DNA of 64,000 nucleotides, from contig NZ_KB894411.1 of assembly GCF_000374445.1 (NCBI RefSeq), forward strand, positions 124,001 to 188,000. Reading direction: 5' to 3'. The translations under genes were made by a program, and so were the position numbers. This stretch comes from Actinokineospora enzanensis DSM 44649. Lineage in GTDB: Bacteria; Actinomycetota; Actinomycetes; Mycobacteriales; Pseudonocardiaceae. Under the pieces are notes generated by a model. The model saw only the letters and a list, made by a program, of their open reading frames with translations. It was not told the DNA's origin and made no database searches. This document shows positions 11,163-33,441 of the stretch, piece after piece. The first letter of the stretch is position 1. Each line of letters opens with the position of its first letter.

Positions 11163-14012
11163 TCACCGACGGTGCTCCCGAGCAGGCGAAGCGTACCCCC
11201 AGCGGGCCGCCAACCGGCCCGCGACGACGGTGTGGCCCGCGTGCCCGTCGGCGTCCGGGCGGGCGTCGGCGAGCGCGAGGTGCGCGGCGTACTCCACGTA
11301 TTTGTGCCGTAGATCACTTGCCAGCCGCAGCGCCTGGGTGGCGTGGACAGCGCCGCGCGGGTCGCCGTGGGCGGTGAGCGCGCGGGCGAGGCCGACGTGG
11401 GCGCGGGCGAGCAGGCCCGGCCCGGCCGACGCGCGGGCCACCGCCAGCGCCTCGGCGAGGCAGGCGAGCGCGTCGGCGCCCTGTCGGAGCCGGACCTCCC
11501 CCAGCGCGAGCAGGGCGACCACCAGGTCCCGGGGGTGGGTCCGGCGAGCCAGGGCGACGGCCCGCTCGGCATGGTCGGCGGCCTGGACAACCGCTACGGC
11601 GCCGGGGTGGACGGCGCTGAGCGCGCGGGCGTGCTCGGCCTCGGCGCCTGGGTGGTCCGGGCGGAGGGCGAGGGCGGCGGCGCTGTCGGCGAGGGCGGCG
11701 CGGTGGCTGCCGACGATCCGGTGCGCGGCGGCCCGGACGCTCAGGGCGTCGGCACGGCTGCCTGCCGGGGCGTCCGGTGGTTCGAGGCTGCGGGTGGCGT
11801 GTCCGGTGGCCGCGGCGGGTTCGCCCAGGTCGAGCAGGAGCGCGGCGAGGTCGGCTCGCGCGCGGGCGGCGGCGTCGGGGCTCACGTGCGGGGCCAGGCG
11901 GACGGCGCGGGTGAGGTAACCGCGGGACCGGCGGGCGTTGCCTTGGTCACTGTGCACGGCGGCGAGCGCGAGCAGGGCCCGGACCTCCTCCGTGTGCTCG
12001 GGTTCGGCGCGGGCGGCGCCGGGGACACCGAGGTCGCGGAAGCGTTTGACGGCGCGGGTCCCGTAGCGCAGCGCGGCCGCGGTGTCCCCGGTGCGGGCGT
12101 GCGCGGCGCTGAGGCTCAGCAGCATCCGGCCTTCGGCGTGCTGGTCGCCCGCGCGGAACGCGGCTTGCAGACCTGCGGTGCCGAGCGCGATCCACTCGGG
12201 GACCCGGGCGCGCGCCTCGACGTGGCCGCGCAGGGCCTCGGCCAGCCGCCAGGCGATGTCGGGGGCGGTGGACTCGACCGCGGCGGTGGCCACCGCGACG
12301 GCTCCCGGCAGTTCGGCGTCCACTCGGCCGACCCGGTCGCCGCACAGTTCGAGGTACCAGTCGCGGAGTGCGTGCCAGGTGCCCCCGTCCGGGCCATCCG
12401 GTTCGCCGCCGAGATCGTGGGCATACCGGCGGATCTCGTCGGGGCAGCCGTAGCGGTCGCGGGCCGGGCGGGTGAGCAGGCGGGCGCAGACCAGACGGTC
12501 GAGCGCGCGGCGGGTCGGGACGAGGCCGATGCCGGCGAGCGCGGCGGCGAGCGGGACACCGAAGTCGGGGCCGGGGATCCGGCCGACCAGGCGGAAGACG
12601 CGGGCGGACTCGGCTTCCAGGGCGTGGTAGGCGGCGGACAGGCCGGGCTCTTCGTCCATAAAGGACGAATCGGTGGCGGCGGCAAGGCGCAGGGCGAGCG
12701 GGAGGTGGCCGCACCGCGCGGCCACCTTGTCGGCGTCGGGCATGTCCCCGAGCAGGGCGAGCGCGTCGTCCGGCAGCAGCGGGCCGAGTTCCAGGCGGTA
12801 CGCGGAATCCTTGGTCACCAGGCTGGTCAGCCGGTCCCGGCTGGTGACCACCACGAGGCTGCCGCCGCCCTCCGGCAGCAGCGGCCGGACCCAGGTGGGA
12901 TCCGCCACACCGTCCACCAGGATCAACACCCGGCGGCCCGCGAGCAGGCCGCGATAGAGCGCGGCGGCCTCGTCGAAGTCCGGGGGCACCCGGTCGCCGG
13001 GAACGCCCAGGACGCGCAGGAAACCGGCGAGCGCGGCCGCCGGGGTGACCGGGGGAAACGGGCCGTAGCCGCGGAAGTCGAGGTGGAGCGCGCCATCCGG
13101 GTACTGGCCGCGGATCCGGTGCGCCCAGCGCAGGGCGAGCGCGGACTTGCCCGTGCCCGCGGGCCCGGTGATCACCACGACCGGGGCGGGGCCGCGCCGG
13201 TCCCCCACCCGTGCGCGGTCCAGTTCGACGAACTCGTCGAGCCGACCGCGGAAATTCCCGTTATTACCGGGTAATAGACGCGGCGCGGCTGGTGGCGTGT
13301 CCGGATCGGAGATCAACACGCGGTGGAAGACGGCCCGCAACGCGGAACCCGACTCGACCCCGAGATCGCGGCCGATGCGCGTGAACTGATCTATCGCCTC
13401 GTCCCGACGGCCCGATGACCACAGCGCCGTCATCACCTGACCGATGATCCGCTCATGCGCGGGATAACGCACCGCGCGGGCGAACAGGTCCGGCAACAAT
13501 TCGCGGTGTTCGCCCAACCGCAATCGGACGTCGACCCGATCCGACTCGACCGCGAGCCGTTCCTGGCGGAGTTGTTCGCGCATCCCGTCGAACCACGGCG
13601 TGGTCAGGTCACCGAACGCGCGACCGCGCCACAACTCGAATGCCTCCGCGTACAAAACCGCGGCTTCCCGGTCTTCCGATCCGCGTGCCCGCGCCACCAA
13701 CAGCCGGAATCGGTGCAGGTCGACCTGGCCGGGGTCGACTATCGCGGCATAGCCGTCCTGATCGCGGACTATTCGCGCACCCGCCGCGGCGAAAACGGCG
13801 CGCAGTTCCGCGAAGTGGTCGGCGAGCGCGCCGCGCACCCGTTCCGGCGGCCGATCCCCCCAGGCGCGTTCGACCAGCACCGCCACCGATACCGGGCGGT
13901 TCGCCTCGGTCAGCAGCACGGCCGCGAGCGCGACCTGTCGAGGATCGCGGGCCCCCGCCGCGGAAACCGCGCCGAGCACCCGGAAAACGACATTCCCACG
14001 CATACTCTCCAT
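11163..14012 (-). CDS. SARP/AfsR-type transcriptional regulator with NTPase and TPR domains
   Basis: A 949-residue regulator. Residues 8-95 form an OmpR-like winged helix of the SARP type; 97-240 form the helical BTAD domain (VDLHRFRLL onward). An NTPase domain follows, with Walker A GPAGTGKS at 283-290 and Walker B VLILVDGV. The C-terminal half is alanine-rich helical repeats that look like TPRs. AfsR relatives activate secondary-metabolite or developmental genes in response to ATP and partner binding. Here it sits between the esx pair and rplM, at a place where the ESX-4 locus and rplM adjoin in mycobacteria, so it may have been inserted there and may control the secretion genes. Regulation of ESX is inference. 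Confidence 0.92.
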   Translation of the reverse strand: MESMRGNVVFRVLGAVSAAGARDPRQVALAAVLLTEANRPVSVAVLVERAWGDRPPERVRGALADHFAELRAVFAAAGARIVRDQDGYAAIVDPGQVDLHRFRLLVARARGSEDREAAVLYAEAFELWRGRAFGDLTTPWFDGMREQLRQERLAVESDRVDVRLRLGEHRELLPDLFARAVRYPAHERIIGQVMTALWSSGRRDEAIDQFTRIGRDLGVESGSALRAVFHRVLISDPDTPPAAPRLLPGNNGNFRGRLDEFVELDRARVGDRRGPAPVVVITGPAGTGKSALALRWAHRIRGQYPDGALHLDFRGYGPFPPVTPAAALAGFLRVLGVPGDRVPPDFDEAAALYRGLLAGRRVLILVDGVADPTWVRPLLPEGGGSLVVVTSRDRLTSLVTKDSAYRLELGPLLPDDALALLGDMPDADKVAARCGHLPLALRLAAATDSSFMDEEPGLSAAYHALEAESARVFRLVGRIPGPDFGVPLAAALAGIGLVPTRRALDRLVCARLLTRPARDRYGCPDEIRRYAHDLGGEPDGPDGGTWHALRDWYLELCGDRVGRVDAELPGAVAVATAAVESTAPDIAWRLAEALRGHVEARARVPEWIALGTAGLQAAFRAGDQHAEGRMLLSLSAAHARTGDTAAALRYGTRAVKRFRDLGVPGAARAEPEHTEEVRALLALAAVHSDQGNARRSRGYLTRAVRLAPHVSPDAAARARADLAALLLDLGEPAAATGHATRSLEPPDAPAGSRADALSVRAAAHRIVGSHRAALADSAAALALRPDHPGAEAEHARALSAVHPGAVAVVQAADHAERAVALARRTHPRDLVVALLALGEVRLRQGADALACLAEALAVARASAGPGLLARAHVGLARALTAHGDPRGAVHATQALRLASDLRHKYVEYAAHLALADARPDADGHAGHTVVAGRLAARWGYASPAREHRR

Positions 14013-14060
14013 CGACGTCCCCCACGTCGGTACGAAGTACGCCCAAGATACACGGAAACG

Positions 14061-14112: not shown

Positions 14113-14409
14113 TCAGGCCCAGCGGCTCGCGTTCGCGTGCTCGGTCTGCTCGTAGTTCTCGCCGGACTGACGCACGGCGGTACCGATCGAGTTGAGGACC
14201 TGCTTCAGGTCGTCGTAGGCGGAGTCCCACTCGCGCTGCTTGGCGTCCCACGCCTCGGCGGCCGCACCGGAGTAACCGGCGCGCAGCGGGGCCAGCCGCG
14301 ACTTGAGGTCGCCGAGCAGGCCGTCGAGCTGCGAGGAGGTGGAGGTGATCGACTGGGCCGCGTTGGCGACCTCGGCGAAATTGACCTTGATGATGTCGCC
14401 GTTAGGCAT
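14113..14409 (-). CDS. WXG100-family type VII secretion protein (EsxA/EsxT-like)
   Basis: A 98-residue helical hairpin protein. The usual central W-x-G turn is replaced by AWDAKQREW; the C-terminus has the type VII signal Y-x3-E (YEQTE). Size and predicted helix-turn-helix shape fit ESAT-6/CFP-10 proteins, which pair as heterodimers. Its partner is encoded 59 bp upstream. By position it corresponds to esxT of the mycobacterial ESX-4 locus. Secretion is by the EccBCDE machinery encoded upstream. Confidence 0.93.
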   Translation of the reverse strand: MPNGDIIKVNFAEVANAAQSITSTSSQLDGLLGDLKSRLAPLRAGYSGAAAEAWDAKQREWDSAYDDLKQVLNSIGTAVRQSGENYEQTEHANASRWA

Positions 14410-14468
14410 TGCTTACTCCCTGTTCAAGTCTTTGGGGTTGGCGCGAAGACCAGTTGTCCGGAAAGGAC

Positions 14469-14777
14469 TCAGCCGAGGACGTTGGTGATGTTGCTCAGCG
14501 AGGAGGAGGCCTCCTCTTCCTGGCGCACGTACGCCTGGTTGCTGGCCTTCAGCTGCTCGGAGATGCCCTGCAGCGCGTCGTGCAGCTTGCGGGCGTCCTC
14601 GTCGAAGCGGTTCATCAGGGTCGCGAACGCGGCGGACGCCTGGCCCCTCCAGTTGTCGTGCAGCGGCGCGAGGTTGCCACGCAGCGTGCTCAGCGCGTTC
14701 CGGCTCTCCTCGTTGACGTTGTCGACGTCAACCGCGGCCTTCGCCATCTCTTCGGGCGTGATTCCGTAACCGGACAT
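14469..14777 (-). CDS. WXG100-family type VII secretion protein (EsxB/EsxU-like)
   Basis: A 102-residue protein with the canonical WRG turn (HDNWRGQASAAF) between two helices and a Y-x3-E secretion motif (YVRQE). It is the likely dimer partner of the protein encoded downstream. It corresponds by position to esxU in ESX-4. The 218 bp upstream hold two CGTACG palindromes 17 bp apart (about 14809-14831), a possible regulatory site, and no clear promoter hexamers. Confidence 0.94.
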   Translation of the reverse strand: MSGYGITPEEMAKAAVDVDNVNEESRNALSTLRGNLAPLHDNWRGQASAAFATLMNRFDEDARKLHDALQGISEQLKASNQAYVRQEEEASSSLSNITNVLG

Positions 14778-14995: not shown

Positions 14996-15244
14996 TCAGC
15001 CGCCGTGGAACAGGATCTGGTGCTGCGAGAAGTCCTCATCATCGGGATCCGCCGGGGACGGTCCGGCTGACTCCCGCTCCGCCGCCTGGACCGGCCTGCG
15101 CGCCAGCCGCTGCGTCTCCCGGCGGAATGCCGCGCTCGTCTCCCGCCCCTCTGCCGACGCGCGCTGCGCGCGGGTGACGGCCGCCGACAGGTCCGCGCGG
15201 AACCGCGCGACCGCGTCGCTGAAGCCCTGGTTCGGTCCGGACAC
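14996..15244 (-). CDS. Small charged protein of the ESX locus, unknown function
   Basis: The GTG at 15244 is selected because GGAGG lies just upstream (GGAGGTGGACG). The 82-residue product is rich in Arg, Ala and Glu, predicted mostly helical, and ends in an acidic stretch (DPDDEDF) and QHQILFHGG. It has no membrane segment. It begins 16 bp after the Hsp70-like gene and precedes the esx pair, so it is probably co-transcribed with the secretion genes. No family is recognised. Confidence 0.7.
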   Translation of the reverse strand: MSGPNQGFSDAVARFRADLSAAVTRAQRASAEGRETSAAFRRETQRLARRPVQAAERESAGPSPADPDDEDFSQHQILFHGG

Positions 15245-15260
15245 CGTCCACCTCCGCAGA

Positions 15261-16982
15261 TCAACCCGAGACGACCATAGAGCGCACGACCGCGGCACAA
15301 GCCTGCCGCACCCGGTCCAGGCCGTCGGGGGTGTACTGGCAACCGATGCTGACCTGGTACCTGCCGCTCAACAGGACGTACCAGTCGACGGTCGCGTTGC
15401 TCGCCCGTTCGCGGTAGTGGATGACGTCGCGGCCGGCGAAGCTGGCCTTGTCGTCGAACTCGGAGAAGACGTCGCCGCCCTGGGTGTAGTCGTCGCGAAG
15501 GCGGTCGACGGCGCGGGCGCGGTCGGCGGTGCTGTCGAAGCTCAGTTCGCGTTCCTGGACGAGGATCTGGTCGTCGCCGCGTTCCGCGCCGGTCGGCTTG
15601 AGGTCGGTACGCATGAGGCCGGGGTTGCCGCCGGTCTGGGTCCAGTCGGCGGGGAGGGTGAAGCGGTACTCGTAGCGGGCGATGGTCTGGGCGGGGTCGT
15701 CCCGGCCCAGCACGATGATCAGGACGGCGGCGATGGCCGCGACCAGCGTCACGCCCGCGATACCGAGCCAGCGGCGGCGCCTGTTCGGCTTGGGTGGGAT
15801 GACCGGGACCGGGACGGCCGGGGTGACGGTGGGGAACGCGGTGCCGACCGGGGGTGGGCCCGATGGTCGAGTGGCCGGGCGGGAGCCGGTGAGCAGGCCG
15901 GTGTGGTCGACGCCGGTGGTGGGGCTGACGGCGCGGAGGGCGCCCCTGGCGACGACGGTCTCCGGCTGGTCGAGGGTGACCGGGACGATGCCGGTCCGGT
16001 CGGCGACGACCTGGGCGACCAGGGGAATGCGGCTGGAGCCGCCGACCAGGAAGACGCCCGCGAGCTGCCGGGGTGCCAGGCCCGCCGCGGAGATCGCGGC
16101 GAGGGTGAGGTCGGCGGCGGTGGCGATCGGGCCGGTGATGATCCGTTCCAGGTCCGGGCGGGTGACGTGGGCGTCCGGGAACGGGGACGGCAGCGGGATG
16201 TCGGCGTAGTTGTGGCGGGAGAGGGTTTCCTTGGCGCTGCGGACATCCTGGTGCAGGACACGCCTGCGGCGGCGGTCGGTGATGTCGCGGCCTTCGAGGA
16301 GTGCGCGCCAGGCCTCCGGGTCTTTCCCGCCCACCGTGGCGCCCAGGTGGTCCAACAGCAGCTGGTCGACGTCCGCGCCGCCGAAGGACGGGTTTCCCTT
16401 GGTGGACAGGATGGTGAACATGCCGGTGGCCTCGGTGCGGACGACGCTGACGTCGGTCGTCCCGCCGCCAAGGTCGAGGATGGCGAGGGTTCTTCCCGGC
16501 GGGCCGGGGAAAGTGGCCGCGTGATGGACGGCGGCGGCCACCGGTTCCGGGATCAGGATGACGCGGGGGCTCAGACCGGTTGCCGCCTGGCGCAGGGTTT
16601 GGGTGCGGAAGCCGCCCCAGTCGGCGGGGTGGGTGAGGACCAGTTGGTCTATCTGGGAATTGCCGGTTACCCGTCTTGCTTCGTCAGTTGCTCGTTGTAG
16701 GACTGCTCGGAAGATCGCGCTCACCGGGATGACGGTGTTGCCGAGCAGCAGTTCGGACTCGTCGATGCGGCGTTTGGGGTGGGGTTCGTAGCGGGAGGGG
16801 TCCAGGGCCGCTTGTCGGTCTGCCTCCTGGCCTACGAAGAGGGTGCCGTCCAGGGCGGCGTAGATGGCGGACGAGAGGAGGGGGTTGCCGTCCACCACTA
16901 CGACCTGGGGGTCGTGCAGGTCACGCGAGATGGCTATGCAGGTGCTGGAGGTGCCGAAGTCGATGGCTGCTCGTAGGGACAT
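15261..16982 (-). CDS. Hsp70-like type VII secretion-associated protein (Rv3446c type)
   Basis: The N-terminal 370 residues are an actin/Hsp70 ATPase fold: DFGTSSTCIAI, LVLTHPADWG, DLGGGTTDVSVV and VFLVGGSSRIP. A proline-rich linker leads to one membrane segment (about 400-425) and an outer domain of about 140 residues beginning YEYRFTLPADWTQTG with paired cysteines near the end. That outer domain is the hallmark of the Rv3446c-family secretion-associated proteins of ESX-4. The protein lacks an Hsp70 substrate-binding domain. Its position between eccC and the esx genes also matches mycobacterial ESX-4. The molecular role is not established. Confidence 0.92.
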   Translation of the reverse strand: MSLRAAIDFGTSSTCIAISRDLHDPQVVVVDGNPLLSSAIYAALDGTLFVGQEADRQAALDPSRYEPHPKRRIDESELLLGNTVIPVSAIFRAVLQRATDEARRVTGNSQIDQLVLTHPADWGGFRTQTLRQAATGLSPRVILIPEPVAAAVHHAATFPGPPGRTLAILDLGGGTTDVSVVRTEATGMFTILSTKGNPSFGGADVDQLLLDHLGATVGGKDPEAWRALLEGRDITDRRRRRVLHQDVRSAKETLSRHNYADIPLPSPFPDAHVTRPDLERIITGPIATAADLTLAAISAAGLAPRQLAGVFLVGGSSRIPLVAQVVADRTGIVPVTLDQPETVVARGALRAVSPTTGVDHTGLLTGSRPATRPSGPPPVGTAFPTVTPAVPVPVIPPKPNRRRRWLGIAGVTLVAAIAAVLIIVLGRDDPAQTIARYEYRFTLPADWTQTGGNPGLMRTDLKPTGAERGDDQILVQERELSFDSTADRARAVDRLRDDYTQGGDVFSEFDDKASFAGRDVIHYRERASNATVDWYVLLSGRYQVSIGCQYTPDGLDRVRQACAAVVRSMVVSG

Positions 16983-17068: not shown

Positions 17069-17084
17069 CGGGTTGCGTTCCCGG

Positions 17085-20000
17085 TCAGTCCGGCTGGATC
17101 CAGGCGATGTGCATGAGGGACTGGCCGACCTTGCGGCTGACCAGGGTGCCGCGGCCGGGGGGCAGGGCGGAGGGTTTGACGGTGCCCAGCAGGGCGCCCT
17201 CGTCCTTGCTGCCGCTGCCGACCAGGCCGGGGCTGGCGATCTCGCGGAGCTTGCCGAGGATGGGGTCGAACAGGGCCCGGCTCGCGCCGCCGGTGCGGCG
17301 GACGGTGATGACGTGCAGGCCGACGTCCTTGGCCTGGGGGAGGAACTCGGCGATCGGCTGGAGGGGGTTGTTGCCCTGGGTGGCGACCAGGTCGTAGTCG
17401 TCGACGATGACGAAGAGCTCCGGGCCCTTCCACCAGGAGCGGTTCCGCAGCTCCTCCTGGGTGACGTCGGGGCCGGGGAGCCGCTTGAGCATGGAGCCGC
17501 GGACGTCCTTGATCATGTCGCCGAGCTGGTTGGACGAGACCGCGTAGCCGAGCAGGTGTTCGGTGTCGATGAAACCGAGCAGGGTGCGGCGGTAGTCGAC
17601 CAGGATGATGACCGCTTCCTTGGGGGTGTAGCGGTCCATGATGCCGCGGATGATGACGCGCAGCAGGTTCGTCTTGCCGGACTCGCCGTCGGCGAAGGCG
17701 ACGAAGTGCGGCTCGGCCTCCAGGTCCAGGTACATCGGGGCCAGGTCGTTCTCGTCGACGCCGATCGGGACCAGTTTGGTGTCCCGGCGGGTGTCCTGGG
17801 CCAGCAGCTCCTCATAGGGCAGGACCTCGGGCAGCAGCCGGACCTTGGGGGCGCCGCGGCCGCGCCAGGAGGACTTGATCTTGGCGACCGCGTCCTGGAC
17901 GCCGCCCGCGACGTCCTCGGGATTGCTTGAGCCGTCGACACGGGGCAGGCCGGTGAGGAAGTGCAGCTTGTCGCGGGAGAGGCCGCGGCCGGGGCGGCCT
18001 GCGGGCACGTTGACCGCGACTCGACGGTCCACATCGGACTCGCTCGGGTCGCCGAGGCGGAGCTCGAAGCGGGTGCCGAGCAGGTCCTTGAGCGCCGGGC
18101 GGATCTCCGCCCAGCGGTTCGCGGCGACGATCACGTGGATGCCGAAGGACAGGCCCTGCGCGGCGAGGTTGACGACCTGCATCTCCAGCGCCTCGAACTC
18201 CTGGCGGAAGTTCAGCCAGCCGTCCACGATCAGGAAGACGTCGCCGAACGGGTCCTCCCGGAGCTCACCGCGCCGCTTGCGGTTGCGGAAGTCGGTCATC
18301 GAGTCGATGCCCCAGTCGCGGAAGCGCTGTTCGCGCTCGGTGACCAGGCCGGAGACCTCGGCCACCATGCGGCGGGCCTTGTCCGGGTCGATACGGCCCG
18401 CGACGCCGCCCACGTGCGGGAGGCCGTCGAGTGTGCCGAGCGTGCCGCCGCCCAGGTCGAGGCAGTAGAACTGGACTTCCTCCGCGGTGTGCGTCAGCGC
18501 CATCGACATGACCAGGGTGCGCAGCATCATCGACTTGCCCGACTGCGGGCCGCCCGCGATGGCCGCGTGGCCCGCGGCGCCGGAGAAGTCGGCCCACAGC
18601 AGGTCGCGGCGCTGTTCGTAGGGCTTGTCGATGATGCCGAGCGGGACCTGGAGCCTGCCGTTGCCGTAGAAGCCGACCGGCGACAGGCCGCGGTCCTCGG
18701 TGGGCTGCAACGGCGGGAACAGCGTGTCCAACGAGTTGGGCTCGTTCAGCGGCGGCAGCCAGACCTCGTGCGCGGGCGGGCCCTGGCCGACCAACCGGCT
18801 GACGACCACGTCCAGCTCGCTGGTCTCCTGGCCGCCCTCCGGCTTGGCCTCCTCCTTGGGCTTCTCCTTCGGCGTCTCCGGTTCCTTCGGGATCTCCACG
18901 TAGTCCGGCACGAAGAGCCTGGCCCGCCGGTCACCCGAGACCGCCGCGACCGGGCCCGCCGCCTGCAGGCCCGCCGGGCGGTACGGACCGGAGACGTAGG
19001 ACGCCTTGAAGCGCACCATGGTGCTGGTGTCGTACTTGAGGTAGCCCGAACCCGGGATCGACGGCAGCTCGAACGCGTCCGACACACCGATGGCCGCGCG
19101 GGACTCCGCGGCGGAGAAGGTCTTCAGGCCGATCCGGTAGGACAGGTGCGAGTCGAGACCGCGCAGCTTGCCCTCCTCCAGGCGCTGCGAGGCGAGCAGC
19201 ATGTGCATCTGCAGCGACCGGCCCAGTCGGCCGATGGCGACGAACAGGTCGATGAAGTCCGGCTTGGCGGACAACAGCTCCGAGAACTCGTCGACCACGA
19301 TGAACAACGCGGGCAACGGGTCCAGGTCGGCGCCGTTCTCCCTGGCCTTCTCGTACTCCCAGACGTTCTTGAAGTTGCCGCCGTTCTTCAGCGCCTCCTG
19401 GCGCCGGTTCATCTCACCGGCGAGCGCGTCCTTCATCCGGTCGACCAACGTCAGGTCGCCCTGCAGGTTGGTGATGACCGCGGCGACGTGCGGCGCGCCG
19501 TCCAGACCGAGGAAGGTCGCGCCACCCTTGAAGTCGACCAGCACGAAGTTCAGCGTGGACGACGAGTGCGTGGCCAGCATGCCCAGCACCAGCGTGCGCA
19601 GGAACTCGGACTTGCCGGAACCGGTGGCGCCGATGCACAGGCCGTGCGGGCCCATGCCCTCCATGGCCGCTTCCTTGATGTCCAGCTCGACGGCCTGGCC
19701 GAACTCGCCGACGCCGAACGGCACCCGGTAGCGGTCGCGCACCGGCCGCGGCCGCCACGCCTGCTGCACGTCGAAGGTCATCGGGTCGCCGGGGATGCCC
19801 AGCAGCTCCAGCAGCGTCGGGTTGGACAGCAGCGGCTCCTCGTCGCCGGTGTCCGCGGCCGCGCCGCCCACCCGGTACGGGGCCAGCTTGCGGGCCAACG
19901 CCTCCGCCTCGGCCACGCTCAGCGTGTCCGGCTGGGCGAACCACTCCACCCCGCTGGCGCTGCGCGCGCCCAGCCGGTCCGCCTCCACCACCAGCCGCAG

Positions 20001-22681: not shown

Positions 22682-22747
22682 TCCATTTCCCCCCACCGCG
22701 ACGGCGCTTTCTGCCGAACCGCCTCATCCCGAGATATCGGTGCGGCC

Positions 22748-25792: not shown

Positions 25793-27412
25793 TCAGACGT
25801 CCAGGGTCCAGCCGTTGATGTAGCCGATGTCGGCCTTGTAGCCGTCCCGGACCTGGAGCTTCCACACACCGGCGGCGTTCTTGGCGGACAGGTTGACGGT
25901 GAAGGTCTGCTTCACGTTGTCGGCCGAGTCCGTGGTGGAGGAGTTCTTCAGGCGGTAGGCGGTGCCGTCGGGGGCGATCAGGTCGACGGTCAGGTCGCCA
26001 CGGTAGGTGTGGATGATGTCCACGGCCACGGTCGAGGCCGTCGCGGCCTTGCCGGTGCAGTTGATGGTGATGGGGCTGAAGACCGCGTCACCCATGTCCG
26101 GGATGTTGACCTTGGTGGTGCTGCTGACCGCGGCGCAGCCGACCGGGGTCGGGGTGGGCGTCGGGGTCGGCGTCGGCGTGGGGGTCGGCGTCGGGGTCGG
26201 GGTGGCCACCGGGACCAGCTGCAACAGCTTGTTCGGCGAGCCGGTGCCCTCGTTGGTGACCTTGCCGGAGACCGAGGCGTTCACCACGGCGGTGGCGACC
26301 TGGGCCGGGGTGGCCGTCGGGTTGGCCGACAGGTACAGCGCCATGACGCCCGCGACGTGCGGGGAGGCCATGGAGGTACCGCTGATGGTGTTCTTCGCGG
26401 TGGTGTTGCCGATCCACGCCGAGGTGATGCCGTCGCCGGGGGCGAAGACGTCCACGCAGGTGCCGTAGTTCGAGTAGCTGGCGCGCGCGTCGGTCTTGGT
26501 GGTGGCGCCGACGGTCACGGCCTCCGGCACGCGGGCCGGGGAGGCGTTGCAGGCGACCGCGTTCGAGTTGCCCGCGGCGACCGCGTAGCTGACGCCCGCG
26601 GCGATGGAGCGCTGCACGGCCTGGTCCAGCGCGGTGGAGGTGGCGCCGCCGAGGCTCATGTTGGCGACGGCGGGCTTCACGCGGTTCGCGGTCACCCAGT
26701 CCACACCGGCGATGACGCCGGAGGTGGTGCCGGAGCCGTTGCAGTCCAGCACCCGGACGCCGACCAGCTTGACGCCCTTGGCGACACCGTAGGTGCTGCC
26801 GCCGATGGTGCCCGCCACGTGCGTGCCGTGGCCGTTGCAGTCGGTGGCGTCGTTGTCGTTGTCGACCTTGTCGGTGCCGCTGACCGCACGGCCACCGAAC
26901 TCGGAGTGCGTCAGGTTGATGCCGGTGTCGATGACGTACACGTTCACGTTCGACGCGGTGGTCGGGTAGGTGTACTTGGTGTTCAGCGGCAGCGCCGCCT
27001 GGTCGATCCGGTCCAGGCCCCACGACGGCGGGTTCGCCTGGTCGATCTTGGCGGTGACCTTCTGGTCCGCCTCGACGAAGGCCACCGACGGGTCGGCGGC
27101 GGTCCACTTGGCCTCCTGCAGCGTCATCGACGCCGAGTAGCCCTTGACGGTGGTGGCGTAGCGCTGCTTGACCTGGCCACCGTGCTTCTTCGCGATGGCG
27201 TCGGCGGTGCTGGACTGCGTCGAGACGCCGTCCTTGTACACCACGATGAAGCTGCCCGGGATCGCGGTCGGCGCGTCGGCACCGAGCACCGGACCTTCGG
27301 CCGCGCTGGCCGAGTTGGACAGGGCCAGGCCCAGTCCGGCGGCGGCGACGGCCGCCACGGCGACACTGACGCCGCCTACTCGCCGCATCCGTGCGGCGCG
27401 AGACATACCCAT
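25793..27412 (-). CDS. Secreted subtilisin-like protease with P domain
   Basis: The ATG at 27412 has GGAG 8 nt upstream. The 539-residue preproenzyme has a Sec signal (ending SNSASAAEG), an I9 inhibitor propeptide ([13 protein letters not shown] to about 125), and an S8 catalytic domain with D in [10 protein letters not shown] in GHGTHVAG and S in [12 protein letters not shown] linker of about ten TP repeats follows, then a C-terminal P (proprotein convertase) domain starting near [12 protein letters not shown]. It has no membrane anchor, unlike MycP, so it should be an exported housekeeping-type protease. It sits inside the ESX locus between mycP and eccE, which is unusual. Confidence 0.95.
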
Positions 27413-27809
27413 TCCATGGTCTCCTTCGCACCAGGCACCCGGCCTCGCCACGGGTGGCGGTCGCGATCGCTGGAGACCCGGGAGGAAACCTCCCGCCTGA
27501 CCAACTGCCGCGGCTGCCCTCAGGGGTCCGACCGGTTTGTGTGCCTGACTGGTGAACTGTCGCGGTGCTCTGCGTGACGCCTAGAACCGCTTGGGTCCGC
27601 CAATTCGGCCGATCGGGCGAAGTCCTGAGGGCTTGTGGTGACTGTGTGGTGTGGAGAACTCCGGCCGGGCGAGTCCGCCCCGGGCCAGGCGCGCAAATGG
27701 CCGGGACGCGGACCGCGCGTCCCGGCCATCTACTTCTTTCCTGACCCAGTTAACGGCCGCCACCAGTGAGAATCGGTGGCCGAACCAGTGCGAACCGGTA
27801 GCGAACGGC
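27413..27809. other. Intergenic region between the subtilase and the eccE operon
   Basis: These 397 bp hold the leader and promoter of the subtilase gene on the minus strand, with a short hairpin CGGGAGG-AAA-CCTCCCG at 27479-27495 about 70 bp before the start, and the terminator at 27697-27729. No small gene with a ribosome site was found, and no promoter hexamers are convincing. Confidence 0.6.
27697..27729 (-). terminator. Terminator of the eccE operon
   Basis: A perfect 14-bp stem (ATGGCCGGGACGCG and complement) with a 5-nt loop lies 81 bp beyond the stop of the gene at 27810. There is no T run on the minus side, while a TTCTTTC tract follows on the plus side, so it may also act on plus-strand transcripts. 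Confidence 0.65.
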
Positions 27810-28541
27810 TCAGTCGCCGCGGCGCACCGGACCGAGGATCTGCTGTTCCTTCTGCGTGGTCACCAGCCGCAGCGGCCGCCACAGGTTCCGGCCAAGGGCC
27901 ACCACCTGGTCATCCGCCAGGGTGGTCAGCTGCTGCACCATCGGGGGTGGCAGCCGCCACACCCGGGCGGCGAGCTGGGCTTGGCCGACCGGCAGCCGCT
28001 GCAACAACACCAGGTCGGCCGCGTTGGCCGTGGCCCCGGCCTGCGGATGCATGTACGGCAGCACGTACACCGTGGTCTGCCAGGGCGAACGCGGCGGGAA
28101 CAGCTCCTGCGGCGTCGGGCCGCCGTCGTGCACGACCAGCAGCGGGCCGTCCTCCGACGGGCGCGGCAGCTCCACCGGGCTCAGCCTGCGGATCTGCACC
28201 AGCGGCGCGGGCCGACCGTCCGGGCCGGTGCCCGCGGCCTTCTGCAGCACCTGCCACGCGGCAGGCCTGCCGGTGGCCACGACCACCCACGCGCCCACCG
28301 CCATCGCCCGCAGCGCCACCTGCCTGGCCAGGTAGAGACCACCCACCAGCACGATCCGGGTCGGCGCCGGGCGCAGCGCGGAGATCGTCAGCGGCTCGCC
28401 CTGCAAACCGGAGCCCAGCACCATCCCGCCGCGGTCGCCGGACGGGCTGACCGCGTCCAGCATCTCCGGGCTGACCAGGAACTCCGGCGCGATGCCCGCC
28501 GACCCGCCCTGGGTGTCCAGCAGCCTGCTCGACCCGCTCAC
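27810..28541 (-). CDS. Protein linked to EccE, unknown function
   Basis: A 243-residue soluble-looking protein; its start overlaps the eccE stop by 4 bp, so it is translationally coupled to eccE. It has alternating hydrophobic strands (TRIVLVGGLYLARQVALRAMAVGAWVVVATGRPAAW is split by a helix) suggestive of an alpha/beta fold, but no nucleotide-binding motif or membrane anchor. By genetic linkage it is a secretion-locus accessory, possibly cytosolic. I do not recognise a named family. Confidence 0.8.
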   Translation of the reverse strand: MSGSSRLLDTQGGSAGIAPEFLVSPEMLDAVSPSGDRGGMVLGSGLQGEPLTISALRPAPTRIVLVGGLYLARQVALRAMAVGAWVVVATGRPAAWQVLQKAAGTGPDGRPAPLVQIRRLSPVELPRPSEDGPLLVVHDGGPTPQELFPPRSPWQTTVYVLPYMHPQAGATANAADLVLLQRLPVGQAQLAARVWRLPPPMVQQLTTLADDQVVALGRNLWRPLRLVTTQKEQQILGPVRRGD

Positions 28542-29980
28542 GCCCGGCCCCCCAACGGCAGCGTCGCGGCCAGCCCGGCCACCTGCAGCCCGCGCAGCGG
28601 GGTCAGCGTGACGCCGATCCGGTCGGAGATCGAGTTCAGCCGGTCGTCGGCGTGCGCCAGCTCGTCCGGGGTGCGCGCGCTCACCCGGACCAGCCCGCGC
28701 AGCCCCACCTGGCCCTCGTCACTGCCCGGGGACAGCGACATGGCGACCGTGGCGGACAGCGCGCGCACGCCGGTGAGCGCGTTGAGGCTGGCCGCCGCCT
28801 TGCCCTGGGGCCAGCCGGTGATCGCGTAGCTGGCGTGGCCGACGCCCGCCGCGGTGACGCCGGTCCAGCGCTCGCGCAGGCTCGCCCGCTCCGGCGTGCC
28901 CGCCACCCCGGTCAGCTCCGCCGCGGCGATACCCGCCTTGAGCAGCTCGTCCGGGTCCAGCGGCCGGGTCGGCACGCCGCGCGACTCCAGCGCGTTGCGC
29001 ACCCGGGACAGCGCGCCGATCAGCGCCCGGTGCGCGCCCATGACGCCGCCGCCGCGCTCGCGTACCGCGGCCGGGCAGCGGCGCGGGTCCAGCCGCACGG
29101 CTACCCAGGTGGTGCGCCGGGCGGCCGCCGACAGCGGGCCGAGCACCTCCAGGTAGGAGGCCAGTGCCGGGGAGTTCGCGGGCAGCGCGGCACTGCCCGG
29201 GTAGCAGTGCCAGATCACCTGGATCGCGTCCAGCACCACGCCGCGGTCCTCCAGGCACGGCGCCAGCGCGCCGAGCGGCAGGCCCGCCGTCGCACCGACC
29301 TGGCTGACCAGCGCGGGCGCCGGGTCCACCAGCAGCACCGCGGTCCAGGTGCCCTCGTGCCAGGCCAGGCCGAGCGGCCTGCGCTCGTGGTCGGTGCCGT
29401 GCGCGACCACCAGGTCCGGCACGGCCAGCCGGAGCAGGCTGACCCGCGGGTCGTCCGGTCCGGTGACCGCGGCGCCCTCGGCGGCGGCCAGGTTGTCGAC
29501 GCTCACCGGGTCCGCAGGCTTGCTCACCCGCGCGTGTGAACGGAACGTGTAGCGGATTGTCAGCCCGACCCACTGGGTGAACCAGCGGCCCCGCCAGCGC
29601 AGGAACGCCACCACCAGCGCCACCGCGGCGATGCCGATGGCCACGTACTTGAGGCCGAGGTCGATCGCCAGCAGCACCAGGCCGATCGCGACGCCGACCT
29701 CCAGCACCACCAGGTTCGCCACCGGCAGCGCGCCCAGGCTCGCGCCCCGGTTGCGCCTGCGCGCGGAGACCCGGGTGGGCGGCGGGGACGGCGGCTGCGC
29801 GTCCGCGGGCGGGCGCCCGCGCGACGGTCCCGAGGGCGGCCCACCCGGCCTGCCGGGGCCACCGGGTCCGCCCGGTCCGCCGGGTCCACCCGGGCCACCG
29901 GGACCCCCCGGTCCGCCGGGTCGGGGCGGCTGGCCGGGAGGAGGCGTGCGGCCCTGTCGTGGAGGTGTGGTCACCGACAT
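28538..29980 (-). CDS. eccE: Type VII secretion protein EccE
   Basis: 480 residues. A Pro/Gly-rich cytosolic head with a run of GGP units (about residues 21-45) precedes two adjacent membrane helices (about 75-125: VANLVVLEVGVAIGLVLLAI and YVAIGIAAVALVVAFL), the RWRGRWFTQWVGL sequence typical of EccE, and a large C-terminal domain. EccE is the peripheral ESX component and partner of the mycosin. Mycobacterial ESX-4 lacks eccE in its locus, so its presence makes this locus more complete. It is divergent from eccB with 134 bp between starts. Confidence 0.9.
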   Translation of the reverse strand: MSVTTPPRQGRTPPPGQPPRPGGPGGPGGPGGPGGPGGPGGPGRPGGPPSGPSRGRPPADAQPPSPPPTRVSARRRNRGASLGALPVANLVVLEVGVAIGLVLLAIDLGLKYVAIGIAAVALVVAFLRWRGRWFTQWVGLTIRYTFRSHARVSKPADPVSVDNLAAAEGAAVTGPDDPRVSLLRLAVPDLVVAHGTDHERRPLGLAWHEGTWTAVLLVDPAPALVSQVGATAGLPLGALAPCLEDRGVVLDAIQVIWHCYPGSAALPANSPALASYLEVLGPLSAAARRTTWVAVRLDPRRCPAAVRERGGGVMGAHRALIGALSRVRNALESRGVPTRPLDPDELLKAGIAAAELTGVAGTPERASLRERWTGVTAAGVGHASYAITGWPQGKAAASLNALTGVRALSATVAMSLSPGSDEGQVGLRGLVRVSARTPDELAHADDRLNSISDRIGVTLTPLRGLQVAGLAATLPLGGRA

Positions 29981-30114: not shown

Positions 30115-31719
30115 ATGCCATCAACACCGACTACCAAGTCACAGGTCCAGGCGTATCGCTTCGTGCTGCGCAGGATGCAGTCCGCGCTCGTCCGCAAGGA
30201 CGCGGTCATGCTGCACGACCCGATGCGCACCCACTCCAGGGCCACCGTGGTCGGCGTCTGCGTCGCCGCCGTCGGCATGATCGGGTTCCTGGTGTACGGG
30301 CTGCTCAGCCCGGCGCCGACGCTGCCGGACAAGTCGGGGATCATCATCGCCGAGCCGTCCGGCTCGGTGTACGTGCTGCTGACCGACACCGAGCGGGGCA
30401 AGGTGCTGGTCCCCACCTTCAACCTGGCCTCGGCGCGGCTGCTGATGGTGGCCCGCAGCAACCCGCAGGGCCAGCAGGCGGGCAGCCAGACCAACGGCGG
30501 CGGCGGCACCGCCGCGCCTGCCGAGGCGCAGATCATCCCGGACTCGAAGCTGGTGGACATCCCGCGCGACCGGCTCACCGGCATCCAGGACGGTCCGCAG
30601 CTGCTGCCCGACGGCAGCCAGCGGATCAGCAACGACTGGGCGGTGTGCGACGAGTACCAGCTGGACACCAGCCTGATCAACTCGGCCAGCCAGAACAAGA
30701 TCGAGACCACCGTGCTCGGCGGCGTCAAGGACCTCGGCCCCGAGCTGGCCGACACCGAGGCACTGCTGGTGCAGGCGCCGACCAAGAAGACGTACCTGGT
30801 CTACCGCACGCCCGCCACCGCCAACATCAAGAACGCCAACACGGTGCGCGCCGAGGTCAAGATGTCCAACAGCAACATGCGCTCCGCGCTGAACCTGAAG
30901 GACGACGCGATCCGGCAGATCACCGTCGGCCTGCTCAACGCCATCCCGGAGGCACCGGAGCTGGCCCCGCCCGCCATCGACGGGCAGGGCGGCCCCAGCC
31001 AGGTGGACATCAACGGGCTGCCGGTCGGCTCGGTCATGCGGGTCGAGCGCGCGGGCGGCGTCGACTACTACGTGCTGCTGCGCGACGGTGTGCAGCAGAT
31101 CAAGAAGACCACCGCGGACCTGATCCGGTTCACCGCGACCGCGGGCGGCGCGGACATCACCAAGGTGTCGCCGGACAAGATCCCGGCGGCGCTGGTGCGC
31201 GGGCGGATCGACGACAGCAGCTTCCCCGAGGTGGTGCCGGAGGCGCTGAGCCCGGTCAACTACCCGGTCGCCTGCCTCGGCTGGAGCGTGGTCGGCGAGG
31301 GCCGCGACGCCGACCAGCACACCGAGGTGCACGTCGGCAAGCAGCTGCGGGTGCCGCTCACCAGCTCGGGCAGGCCCGCCTCCATCCCGATCAGCAGCCC
31401 GAGCGCGGACGGCGAGCGGCTGGACCACTTCTACCTGCCGCCCGGCCGCGCGGCCGTGGTCCGCGGCGCCACCTCCAAACAGGACTTCGCCACCGGCCCG
31501 ATCTACCTGATCTCCGACCGGGGCGTGAAGTTCGGCGTCCCCGACCAGCGCACCGCGCAGGCCCTCGGGCTGGCCCAGCAGGTCCCGGCCCCGGACGCGA
31601 TCGTGCGGCTGCTGCCCAACGGCGCCTCGCTGAACACTCGGGACGTGCTGCAGACCTACGACGTGGTGCCGGTCGCGCCGGGCGCGTTCTCGACCACCAC
31701 GGCGCAGCCAGGCGGCTGA
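30115..31719 (+). CDS. eccB: Type VII secretion protein EccB
   Basis: The ATG at 30115 gives the family N-terminus (TTKSQVQAYRFVLRRMQSAL), although the ribosome site is weak. The 534-residue protein has a short cytosolic part, one membrane helix (TVVGVCVAAVGMIGFLVYGL) and a large outer domain with repeated beta modules, including the paired cysteines in WAVCDEYQ and VACLGWSV. EccB is the outer-facing ATPase-like or scaffold subunit of the ESX complex. The two presumed substrates are encoded directly downstream on the same strand. Confidence 0.96.
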   Translation: MPSTPTTKSQVQAYRFVLRRMQSALVRKDAVMLHDPMRTHSRATVVGVCVAAVGMIGFLVYGLLSPAPTLPDKSGIIIAEPSGSVYVLLTDTERGKVLVPTFNLASARLLMVARSNPQGQQAGSQTNGGGGTAAPAEAQIIPDSKLVDIPRDRLTGIQDGPQLLPDGSQRISNDWAVCDEYQLDTSLINSASQNKIETTVLGGVKDLGPELADTEALLVQAPTKKTYLVYRTPATANIKNANTVRAEVKMSNSNMRSALNLKDDAIRQITVGLLNAIPEAPELAPPAIDGQGGPSQVDINGLPVGSVMRVERAGGVDYYVLLRDGVQQIKKTTADLIRFTATAGGADITKVSPDKIPAALVRGRIDDSSFPEVVPEALSPVNYPVACLGWSVVGEGRDADQHTEVHVGKQLRVPLTSSGRPASIPISSPSADGERLDHFYLPPGRAAVVRGATSKQDFATGPIYLISDRGVKFGVPDQRTAQALGLAQQVPAPDAIVRLLPNGASLNTRDVLQTYDVVPVAPGAFSTTTAQPGG

Positions 31720-31817
31720 TCCCCGACACCCGATACCGCCGAGCGGGTGGTCGCGGGAACCACCCGGCACGGCCTAACGTCAAACGGGCACGTTCCGCGT
31801 CCCGCTGGGAGGTCACC

Positions 31818-32129: not shown

Positions 32130-32142
32130 GGGGAGACCCCAC

Positions 32143-33441
32143 ATGCGCACCCGACGCGACGACTGGCAGACCGGGGACGGCTCGACGACCTGGTCCCCGG
32201 ACACCGGCCTGTCCGCCCCCGAGGTGTGGGACACCTCCGGCTGGGACACCCCCGCGCCCGCCCCGCACGGCGAGCCCGCGCTCGCCAGGGTCGATGCGCC
32301 GGAGAGCGACGCCGACTCCGGTGAGCCTGCGCTGGCCACCGCCGACGAGCCGCCGGTGGTGAGCGCGCAGGGTGGCCTGGACGGGTCGGACATCGAGGCC
32401 AACATCGGCTCCTACCTGGACTTCCTCAGCAGGCTCTGCCGCGAGCTGGGCATCCCCGACCCGGTCGAGGAGTACTTCGCCCCGGTCGTCGGCCGGTGGA
32501 GCGACCTGCACGGCGAGGCCGAGCGCTGGCGTGCCGTCGGCGCGAAGGCCGAACACGTGATGGGCGAGCTGACCACCCCGCTCGGCGGTCTGGACGCGGC
32601 CTGGCAGGGCGCGGACGCGGACTCGTTCATCGACTACATGAACCGGGTCGGCCTGGCTGGCAACGACATGTCCGACGCCATGACCGGCATGGGCGAGGTC
32701 CTGGACGCCACCGCAGACGGCCTGCGCGAGATCGTGACCGAGATGGCGGGCCTGCTCGCGGAGGTCGCGCAGAACGGCAAGCAGGCCATGTCCGGGGCGG
32801 GGCGCAACGAGGACCGCACGCGGCAGTACCTGGACGCGATGAACCGGCCGACGCGGGAGCTGTTCGAGGCCGTGCGGCAGATGCTGGAAGCGTTGGTGCG
32901 CCTGTGCGACGGCATCGACGGCGCCAAGGTCTTCGACACGATCACGATGGCGCACACGTTCCCGGAACAGGACTTCGCGTTCGCCGTGCCGACCGTGCCC
33001 GGGGTGACGGTGCCGCCGCCCTCGTCGGAGTCCGTGCCCGCGGCGGCTGCCGCGGGGATCCCGGCCGACGCAAGCGCTTTCGACGGCGGCGGCGCCGGTG
33101 GGGGCGGTTTCGGCGGTGGCGGTGGTGGGGGCACGAGTGGCGGCGGTGGCGCGTCGACCGGTCAGCCGCCGCAGGCCGGTGGTTACGTGTCCGCCGGGGA
33201 GGCGGCGCCGAGCAAGCCTGGCGGTCTCGCCCCGGCCGCGGCGGCGGCCGCTGATGCCGGTGGCCGACCGGCGGGCGGCGGCATGATGGGCGGCGGCATG
33301 CCGATGGGGATGATGGGTGGCATGGGCGGCCAGGGCGGGGGGAACGGCGAGCACAAGCCGCGCACCCGGGTCGCGGGCAACCCACAGGACATCTTCGGCA
33401 AGCCGGCCAAGTCCTCTCCCCCAGTGATCGGCGACAACTGA
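32143..33441 (+). CDS. Large WXG100/PPE-like type VII secretion substrate with glycine-rich tail
   Basis: 432 residues; ATG after GAGGGGAGACC. An acidic N-terminal tail of about 85 residues precedes a helical domain (about 85-270) with a WQG turn in LDAAWQGADADSF, as in WXG100 and PPE proteins. The C-terminal third is Gly/Ala/Pro-rich with GGGG and GGM runs, ending in the short sequence RVAGNPQDIFGKP. It is the likely partner of the EspC-like protein. The gene ends 13 bp from convergent truA. Surface localisation is inference. Confidence 0.87.
   Translation: MRTRRDDWQTGDGSTTWSPDTGLSAPEVWDTSGWDTPAPAPHGEPALARVDAPESDADSGEPALATADEPPVVSAQGGLDGSDIEANIGSYLDFLSRLCRELGIPDPVEEYFAPVVGRWSDLHGEAERWRAVGAKAEHVMGELTTPLGGLDAAWQGADADSFIDYMNRVGLAGNDMSDAMTGMGEVLDATADGLREIVTEMAGLLAEVAQNGKQAMSGAGRNEDRTRQYLDAMNRPTRELFEAVRQMLEALVRLCDGIDGAKVFDTITMAHTFPEQDFAFAVPTVPGVTVPPPSSESVPAAAAAGIPADASAFDGGGAGGGGFGGGGGGGTSGGGGASTGQPPQAGGYVSAGEAAPSKPGGLAPAAAAAADAGGRPAGGGMMGGGMPMGMMGGMGGQGGGNGEHKPRTRVAGNPQDIFGKPAKSSPPVIGDN

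What the first reader, a model, noticed from the sequence alone, without database searches (positions are those of the whole stretch)
11163..33441. Complete ESX-4-type secretion locus with accessory genes
The order esx pair, Hsp70-like, eccC then divergent eccD-mycP, flanked by rplM and truA-rplQ, matches mycobacterial ESX-4 synteny. It adds eccE, an EspC-like and a PPE-like substrate, a SARP regulator, an extra subtilase and two membrane paralogues. This looks like a functional fuller version of the ancestral type VII system.
Basis: partly seen in the sequence, partly recalled or inferred. Interest (0 to 1): 0.75.

Follow-up and report, generated by a model that had tools for sequence, protein, structure and literature searches.

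The report
ESX-4 secretion locus with pseudo-ATPase partner
The stretch holds a complete, ordinary-looking ESX-4 protein-secretion system of a soil actinomycete, and right after its EccE gene sits a conserved gene for a dead-looking motor domain that other bacteria carry fused to EccE, which hints at an overlooked part of the type VII secretion machine.

Summary
In detail: window 14113-33441 is an intact type VII (ESX-4) locus between rplM and truA-rplQ, in an Actinokineospora-like genome with one EccB. [quoted passage not shown] the Hsp70-like gene carries the T7SS_Rv3446c domain. EccB and EccC fall with Pseudonocardiaceae rplM/truA loci, outside the mycobacterial ESX-1/2/3/5-type rows. It is not an enriched ESX-4: eccE is in 69 of 71 relative loci with eccB, the other two being cut at a contig end, and at truA in other groups. 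EccE looks ancestral; five Mycobacterium-type truA/rplM loci lack it.

The new part is the 243-aa gene overlapping eccE (27810-28541), without Pfam or NCBIfam match. It is predicted to have the FtsK/HerA/EccC ATPase fold without Walker A (0 of 59 homologues). In Mycobacteriaceae the same domain is the C-terminal tail of EccE (E 1.7e-21), traceable in ESX-2-type and weakly in ESX-1-type EccE, but without room in ESX-3/ESX-5-type EccE, the kinds with solved structures. I propose an EccE-linked pseudo-ATPase that docks on the EccC motor; that role is inferred.

The parts
14113..14409 (-). WXG100 protein (98 aa), candidate secreted Esx partner; YxxxE motif near the C-terminus
   Evidence: PF06013 5.2e-20, TIGR03930 82.6 bits over cut-off; motif YEQTE at residue 86
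14469..14777 (-). WXG100 protein (102 aa), candidate secreted Esx partner; WRG and YxxxE motifs
   Evidence: PF06013 6e-21 and EspC PF10824 32.9 bits over cut-off, TIGR03930 77.0 bits over cut-off; motifs
14996..15298 (-). small ORF (100 aa from the first possible start) between the esx pair and the Hsp70-like gene, unknown
   Evidence: only chance-level family matches; homologues recognised in 20 of 80 loci
15261..16982 (-). Hsp70/actin-like protein with one hydrophobic stretch and a C-terminal T7SS_Rv3446c domain
   Evidence: HSP70 PF00012 9.2e-30; TIGR03931 90.0 bits, cut-off 47.6; found in 71 of 80 loci
17085..21077 (-). EccC, three Walker A motifs (residues 483, 842, 1129)
   Evidence: TIGR03924/TIGR03925 over cut-off; motifs; tree
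21112..21831 (-). membrane protein 1, paralogue of the next
   Evidence: 5 hydrophobic stretches; BLASTP 40% over 73 aa with 21965-22696
21965..22696 (-). membrane protein 2
   Evidence: 7 hydrophobic stretches; homologue recognised in 7 of 80 loci, all Actinokineospora
22820..24214 (+). EccD
   Evidence: TIGR03920 295.3 bits, cut-off 94.95; PF08817 and PF19053
24211..25659 (+). MycP mycosin, Asp/His/Ser motifs present, C-terminal hydrophobic stretch
   Evidence: TIGR03921 373.7 bits, cut-off 278.75; motifs and stretch
25793..27451 (-). subtilase with I9 propeptide and P-domain; signal-peptide-like N-terminus (by eye) suggests Sec export; accessory
   Evidence: PF00082, PF01483, PF05922; matches over 150 bits in 14 of 80 loci, a lower bound since flanks are cut, and in 5 of the 13 Pseudonocardiaceae loci fetched with truA (L156, L158, L204, L206, L208)
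27810..28541 (-). EccE-linked pseudo-ATPase (243 aa), FtsK/HerA fold predicted, no Walker A; free-standing form of the EccE C-terminal domain
28538..29980 (-). EccE (two hydrophobic stretches); its stop overlaps the start of the pseudo-ATPase gene by 4 bases (GTGA)
   Evidence: TIGR03923 199.9 bits, cut-off 108; overlap and stretches
30115..31719 (+). EccB, divergent from eccE; the only EccB match in the genome
   Evidence: TIGR03919 341.8 bits, cut-off 154; one match in own genome
31818..32129 (+). EspC-like small protein with YxxxD motif, candidate substrate
   Evidence: PF10824 21.3 bits, cut-off 23.5; motif; homologues in 47 of 80 loci
32143..33441 (+). 432-aa protein with a WXG-like region and Gly-rich tail, candidate substrate; not a PPE by Pfam
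   Evidence: PF06013 24.5 bits, cut-off 27.3; homologues in 46 of 80 loci

Best explanation
This is a genuine chromosomal ESX-4 (T7SSa) locus that keeps what looks like the ancestral parts list. SHOWN by sequence: EccB, C, D, E, MycP, an Esx pair, the Rv3446c-type Hsp70-like protein and, overlapping eccE, a conserved protein with a predicted FtsK/HerA ATPase fold that lacks the nucleotide-binding P-loop. The same domain is fused to the EccE C-terminus in Mycobacteriaceae and in Micromonosporaceae-like genomes. INFERRED: EccC hydrolyses ATP and drives Esx (and probably EspC-like/WXG-like) substrates through a membrane complex of EccB/C/D/E held by MycP; the EccE-linked pseudo-ATPase sits in the cytosol beside the string of EccC nucleotide-binding domains and packs on them as an inactive subunit, setting their open or contracted state or holding substrate. 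ESX-3/ESX-5-type EccE lost the domain, and Mycobacterium-type ESX-4 lost EccE altogether.
For: Core parts over curated cut-offs. EccB tree (95 rows): 33 Pseudonocardiaceae rows (99) next to all 27 Mycobacteriaceae rows (98), joint 97, with 14 ESX-1/2/3/5-type rows a clade (99) inside the latter; EccC tree (75 rows): 29 Pseudonocardiaceae rows (100), 10 ESX-2/3/5-type rows apart (100). eccE in 69 of 71 loci with eccB, the other two cut at a contig end (L002, L078); the 243-aa gene in 68 of 69 loci with eccE, the other cut at its end (L001). Order-level survey: EccE in 139 (118 over cut-off) and the 243-aa family in 118 of 199 genomes; 116 of those 118 also have EccE (compared by hand). AlphaFold pLDDT 82.0, pTM 0.78. 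Foldseek: the 8 PDB matches with E<=0.001 are a SIR2/HerA complex (7.4e-6), EccC2 ATPase (two chains), VirB4 (two chains), T. curvata EccC (2.4e-4), FtsK and one chain titled 'a bacterial protein' (EccC2 name). Walker A in 0 of 59 and 0 of 14 rows; Asp139 in 59 of 59. 17 fused ORFs, 14 distinct, all in Mycobacteriaceae, 1 more there and 3 in Micromonosporaceae-like genomes. hhalign of the 243-aa family vs 14 EccE tails: E 1.7e-21, 99.4%; those tails vs ESX-2-type tails 1.6e-16 (98.7%), vs ESX-1-type 1.4e-5 (80.2%), controls 0.084-0.62. Distances over 29 loci: EccB-EccE r 0.85, EccB-EccC r 0.85. Setting: in extended ESX-5 the EccC domains lie along EccD and EccE (PMC8131196, passages).
Against: No experiment. 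Profile comparison of the 243-aa family with EccC ATPase domains 3 and 2 gave nothing (0.2% and 0.3%), so kinship with EccC rests on fold alone, with moderate TM-scores (0.37-0.55 by query length for the eight best) over gapped alignments. Direct comparison of the 243-aa family with ESX-1- and ESX-2-type tails is weak (44.9%, E 2.2e-4; 33.6%, E 4.4e-4): the link runs through the fused tails. The fused domain itself was not modelled. Trees have midpoint roots and short searches; which groups are sisters depends on the root (in the EccC tree it falls inside Mycobacteriaceae); several EccE rows are long branches and two long-branch joins were flagged. Whether fusion or fission came first is open.
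Confidence: 0.7

Rival explanations
1. Later additions: eccE and the EspC/WXG genes were acquired by this lineage from plasmid-borne ESX systems, as in the published model in which eccE, pe and ppe joined an ESX-4 copy on a plasmid (Newton-Foot 2016).
For: Published model (PMC4791881, passages); relatives of a fused EccE exist in 50 plasmid records.
Against: EccE lies at the truA side of ESX-4 in 13 of 13 fetched Pseudonocardiaceae loci that include truA and rplQ, in 3 of 8 Mycobacteriaceae truA/rplM loci (the 3 not of genus g2) and in one locus of another order (L185, seen again in L234). The EccE tree splits 28 Mycobacteriaceae rows from the 49 others with support 100 and puts no Pseudonocardiaceae row among ESX-1/2/3/5-type rows. 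Plasmid EccE share the long tail of Mycobacteriaceae chromosomal EccE: 16 of the 25 listed matches reach residue 540 or more of a 570-aa fused query and all 25 pass 460, so they look derived from that family's form.
Confidence: 0.1
2. The 243-aa protein is not a degenerate ATPase but a generic Rossmann-like EccE domain (scaffold) whose likeness to HerA/FtsK is convergent.
For: No sequence-level link to EccC; PDB profile hits only chance-level, some to Rossmann enzymes (adenosylhomocysteinase, E 0.67 and up); EccE's own core has a weak glycosyltransferase likeness without a nucleotide pocket (PMC6986878, passages).
Against: 48 of the 50 listed Foldseek matches are named HerA, FtsK, VirB4, EccC, TcpA or B204, or complexes that contain them; the other two (8wiv, 8wj3) are titled only 'a bacterial protein' (EccC names). 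An invariant Asp ends the Walker-B-like strand.
Confidence: 0.2
3. An ordinary ESX-4 locus with nothing to add: accessory genes are neighbours of no consequence and the 243-aa gene is a minor cofactor.
For: SARP, membrane paralogue and small ORF are patchy (7, 7 and 20 of 80 loci), S8 protease at least 14 of 80 (lower bounds where flanks are cut).
Against: The 243-aa gene is as conserved as eccE wherever it can be judged (68 of 69, the other cut) and recurs as a fusion in other families.
Confidence: 0.15
4. A decaying, non-functional locus.
For: None found; secretion was not tested.
Against: Reading frames intact, Walker A motifs in three EccC domains and MycP triad motifs present; EccC 88-94% identical (best segment) in the 8 other Actinokineospora loci.
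Confidence: 0.03

Closest known systems
ESX-4 of Mycobacterium (eccC4-eccD4-mycP4-eccB4, Rv3446c, esxT/esxU; names recalled)
   Same: rplM and/or truA flanks, Esx proteins, Rv3446c-type protein, EccC divergent from EccD-MycP, EccB towards truA (L193, L194, L214, L221, L222)
   Different: These five loci have no EccE (EccE places of the five genomes, lie elsewhere); the window has EccE and its linked domain, EspC-like/WXG genes, and an inverted eccB block
ESX-4 with eccE4 of the M. abscessus-chelonae complex
   Same: An ESX-4 locus with EccE, reported to secrete EsxT/EsxU (PMC9401124 and PMC10906988, passages)
   Different: Not compared here by sequence; described in print as an exception among mycobacteria
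ESX-4-bis / ESX-4EVOL loci
   Same: EccB divergent from EccE (L203, L213, L236); the label for these loci is my inference
   Different: No truA or rplM in the stretches fetched; EccE and the pseudo-ATPase domain are one protein; eccA reported in such loci (PMC7478629, passages), not searched for in the window's genome
EccC nucleotide-binding domains, including the N-terminal 'DUF' domain
   Same: Fold class: Foldseek matches to T. curvata EccC, EccC2 and EccCb1 ATPases and N-terminal ESX-3 EccC3 chains
   Different: Free-standing soluble protein linked to EccE, no hydrophobic stretch, no Walker A, no detectable sequence kinship

Membership tests
ESX-4 (T7SSa) | EccB, EccC, EccD and MycP by curated models | tested here: met
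   all over cut-off
ESX-4 (T7SSa) | Esx/WXG100 pair and Rv3446c-type protein | tested here: met
ESX-4 (T7SSa) | rplM ... truA-rplQ location shared with Mycobacterium-type ESX-4 | tested here: met
ESX-4 (T7SSa) | EccB and EccC outside the ESX-1/2/3/5 rows | tested here: met
   in one genome (G125) ESX-1, -2, -3 and -5 labels were checked against named PDB chains, the others follow from the trees
ESX-4 (T7SSa) | No EccA, EspG, PE or PPE | tested here: inconclusive
   No PE, PPE or EspG model over cut-off in the window genes scanned (14469-14777 has sub-threshold PPE 22.8 and PE 18.7 bits); EccA was not searched for in the genome
ESX-4 (T7SSa) | Secretes its Esx pair | not testable with these tools
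   needs culture-filtrate proteomics
PPE family (for 32143-33441) | PF00823 domain | tested here: not met
EspC family (for 31818-32129) | PF10824 over cut-off | tested here: inconclusive
   21.3 bits against 23.5
Mycosin (for 25793-27451) | TIGR03921 over cut-off | tested here: not met
   108.4 against 278.75
FtsK/HerA-type ATPase (for 27810-28541) | Fold | tested here: met
   predicted model only
FtsK/HerA-type ATPase (for 27810-28541) | Walker A motif | tested here: not met
   0 of 59 homologues
EccE C-terminal domain (for 27810-28541) | Profile match to the tails of fused EccE | tested here: met
   E 1.7e-21, 99.4%

The most novel reading that the evidence does not exclude
The type VII motor was originally a mixed assembly: active EccC domains plus an inactive FtsK-type domain carried by EccE or encoded right after it. 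It survives in ESX-4 of many actinomycetes, ESX-4-bis, plasmid ESX, ESX-2 and, worn down, in ESX-1 EccE, but was lost in ESX-3 and ESX-5, so the solved structures show a reduced machine.
Probability: 0.45. Interest if true: 0.8.

Novelty: new variant of a known kind. Interest (0 to 1): 0.58.

Why it matters
Passages I read treat EccE as absent from the ancestral ESX-4 (PMC6986878) or present in all ESX systems but some ESX-4 variants (PMC11217815). The loci here suggest that EccE with a pseudo-ATPase partner is the ancestral state and Mycobacterium-type ESX-4 is reduced. It also points to a concrete, untested component of T7SSa outside the reach of the ESX-3 and ESX-5 structures, with harmless host families in which to test it.

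Tried and rejected
Considered and rejected: the S8/P-domain protease as a second mycosin (far under cut-off); the 32143-33441 product as a PPE protein; the 243-aa gene as a membrane paralogue (no hydrophobic stretch); a repeat-mediated inversion of the eccB block (no near-perfect inverted pair at its edges among the 25 of 212 pairs shown).

Led nowhere: profile search of the 243-aa family against PDB sequences (6 chance-level hits) and Pfam by member (at most 2 of 59 members match any family at E<=1); hhalign against EccC domains 3 and 2; EccE phmmer against PDB (6 chance-level hits). Paper searches by term; one returned only unrelated papers and 89 none. Term searches in one open-access library cannot show that the domain is undescribed.

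Rows and loci left out: one search kept the best 80 of 247 EccC relatives; only 20 of these 80 were offered to the EccB/EccC trees and 12 to the EccE tree (11 entered); EccC hits under 900 aa were dropped, so split ESX-1-type EccC are missing; EccE rows covering under 60% of the profile were left out; loci closer than 0.1 in EccB were thinned from 31 to 29. In one search ESX-1- and ESX-2-type tails were grouped by tail length (160-167 aa, ten; 188-204 aa, four); L120 (141 aa) was left out, and of these fourteen only the two from G125 (L096 and L103) were placed by neighbourhood and PDB matches.

Full report
WHAT IS THERE. The window lies at G000:C9:124001-188000 of an 8.1-Mb, 87-contig genome. 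In one search (best 80 of 247 EccC relatives kept) the 8 loci at 88-94% identity are Actinokineospora; the next are other Pseudonocardiaceae. The genome has one EccB match. EccC carries three Walker A motifs, MycP its Asp/His/Ser motifs, and both Esx proteins and the EspC-like protein a YxxxD/E motif near the C-terminus (that this is the general T7SS signal is recalled).

IS IT ESX-4. Synteny: loci with truA or rplM, Rv3446c-type Hsp70-like gene, EccC, EccD, MycP and EccB occur in unnamed Mycobacterium-type genomes (L193, L194, L214, L221, L222). That family f2 is Mycobacteriaceae is inferred; contig G034:C2 has the same length, 199256, as a Mycolicibacterium crocinum plasmid record. EccB tree (95 rows): the window is in a clade of 33 Pseudonocardiaceae rows (99), next to all 27 Mycobacteriaceae rows (98), joint support 97; 14 rows of ESX-1/2/3/5 type form a clade (99) inside the latter. 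EccC tree (75 rows): 29 Pseudonocardiaceae rows (100), 10 ESX-2/3/5-type rows apart (100); here the midpoint root falls inside Mycobacteriaceae and the 29 rows are joined by 26 rows of other T7SSa loci (99). Without a root both trees show the same three groups; which are sisters is not settled. Labels: in G125, EccC of L190 matches EccCb1 (651 bits) and EccC of L192 matches EccC2 (533 bits over 270 aa); an EccE of G125 matches EccE5 and another EccE3.

CORE AND ACCESSORY. In the 80 loci, cut by a 10-kb flank: eccD 78, mycP 77, eccB 71, Hsp70-like 71, eccE 69, the 243-aa gene 68, esx genes 64-65, EspC-like 47, WXG/'PPE-like' 46, small ORF 20, S8/P-domain protease over 150 bits 14, membrane paralogue 7; SARP over 86-96% of its length 7. 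These are lower bounds for genes near a cut end. The absences of eccE beside eccB (L002, L078) and of the 243-aa gene beside eccE (L001) are cut ends. L040 and L067 hold an EccC with no eccB, eccD or mycP recognised.

ECCE IS NOT AN ADDITION. EccE models match 139 of 199 order-level genomes (118 over cut-off), 91 of 295 class-level (62 over) and 15 of 148 phylum-level genomes (10 over); within the window's family 39 of 40. Among fetched stretches, EccE stands beside EccB in 13 of 13 Pseudonocardiaceae loci with truA and rplQ (L144, L146, L149, L151, L155-L158, L204-L208), in 3 of 8 Mycobacteriaceae loci with truA or rplM (L200, L201, L202), and in one locus of another order of the class (L185, again in L234). 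The five without are all of genus g2, and the EccE places listed for those genomes lie elsewhere. EccE distances follow EccB as EccC does (29 loci; r 0.85 and 0.85; 12 loci outside the big clade: 0.73 and 0.54; 0 of 2000 permutations reached any). The EccE tree (77 rows) separates 28 Mycobacteriaceae rows from 49 others with support 100, but 11 rows are long branches and some joins are flagged as doubtful. [quoted passage not shown] eccE incorporated on plasmids (PMC4791881); all but 'some ESX-4 variants' (PMC11217815); only M. abscessus, chelonae and immunogenum among mycobacteria (PMC10906988). Of these papers I saw passages (and the abstract and outline of PMC11217815), not the whole texts.

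THE GENE AFTER ECCE. Window 27810-28541 starts inside the eccE stop (GTGA), has no hydrophobic stretch and no Pfam or NCBIfam match (Pfam by member of 59 homologues). Its family occurs in 118 of 199 order-level genomes; 116 of these also have an EccE match, the exceptions being G223 and a marginal hit in G509 (compared by hand; co-occurrence in a genome, not always adjacency: the weak hit in G250 is not beside its EccE). AlphaFold2 on 59 sequences gave pLDDT 82.0 and pTM 0.78. Foldseek on PDB gave 659 matches at E<=10 and 8 at E<=0.001: 8woc (SIR2/HerA complex) 7.4e-6, 6jd5 two chains (EccC2), 4ag5 VirB4 two chains, 4nh0 T. curvata EccC 2.4e-4, 6t8g FtsK, 8wiv ('a bacterial protein'). Strand 61-66 is followed almost at once by helix 69-81, so there is no P-loop, and no row holds GxxxxGK[ST] (0 of 59), while Asp139 is invariant. 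Sequence-profile comparison with EccC domains failed.

FUSION. In Mycobacteriaceae the profile hits the same reading frame just after EccE: 17 fused ORFs, 14 distinct because three appear in two loci each, and L236. Three ORFs of family f49 are fused too (L224-L226), while L227 of the same family and L228-L235 of other families have separate neighbouring or overlapping frames (Micromonosporaceae for f49 is my guess). hhalign of the 243-aa family against 14 such tails: 99.4%, E 1.7e-21, 179 columns. Tail length after the EccE domain: 2 aa in the window (L090) and in 13 Streptomyces-like frames (a further weak one, L101, 19); 182-221 in ESX-4-like, -bis and one plasmid-type frame; 160-167 in ten ESX-1-type (L120, 141); 188-204 in four ESX-2-type; 4-52 in the short ESX-3/ESX-5-type frames. 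Against the fused tails, ESX-2-type tails score 98.7%, E 1.6e-16, and ESX-1-type 80.2%, E 1.4e-5; against the 243-aa family directly only 33.6% (4.4e-4) and 44.9% (2.2e-4); short tails, reversed tails and EccB/EccC pieces 0.1-0.7%, E 0.084-0.62. Single G125 tails: 95.7% (8.6e-9) and 38.5% (3.3e-4). A short-tail EccE matches solved EccE5 and another solved EccE3; an ESX-1-type EccE matches no solved chain at E<=0.001. In the plasmid collection 50 records hold relatives of a fused EccE; all 25 listed carry an EccE annotation under the match. A homologue of the 243-aa protein in a named Streptomyces plasmid has no listed annotation, and a second, short match lies in a gene annotated eccE.

HOW IT PROBABLY WORKS. 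Shown: the parts and their linkage. From print: EccE binds EccD in a cytosolic bridge and in the extended state the EccC domains lie along EccD and EccE (PMC8131196, passages); EccE3 does not touch EccB3 or EccC3 directly (PMC6986878, passages). Inferred: an inactive FtsK-type domain tethered to EccE would sit there and could pack on EccC domains as one more, dead, subunit, gating or latching them. My odds for this role are about one in three; for the domain being a true degenerate FtsK/HerA relative about three in four.

VERDICT. The locus itself is a new member of a known kind and typical of its family. The EccE-linked pseudo-ATPase is a component that I did not find described in the passages read or the searches listed, and is the reason for the score.

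Noticed in passing
window 25793-33441: The block S8 protease, 243-aa gene, eccE, eccB, EspC-like, WXG gene is inverted relative to all 71 relative loci with eccB and to 6 of 6 unnamed same-genus genomes; real inversion or assembly error.
   Followed up: partly
G000:C1:6153-9865 (L209): A second FtsK/EccC-like frame (1559 aa) with a sub-threshold WXG100 hit nearby, while the genome has a single EccB; a possible second, different type VII-like system.
   Followed up: no
G000:C1:303327-303884 (L210:7328-7885): A second WXG100 pair with no EccC recognised in the 20 kb fetched.
   Followed up: no
L040, L067: EccC copies at 77% and 76% identity with no eccB, eccD or mycP recognised in 24 kb (Amycolatopsis).
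   Followed up: no
L012, L021, L071: In three Actinosynnema/Kibdelosporangium loci eccB lies on the other side of, and opposite to, eccC; the locus seems prone to local rearrangement.
   Followed up: partly
L222 (G577): EccB at the truA locus of a Mycobacterium-type genome matches only in two separated parts within a 369-aa frame, which suggests a shortened or decayed gene; described only.
   Followed up: no
L145, L147, L148, L150, L152, L154, L159-L162: Several Pseudonocardiaceae carry further T7SSa loci without truA in the stretch, of a separate EccB/EccC group; G502, G516 and G525 have a second homologue of the 243-aa protein away from the truA locus.
   Followed up: partly
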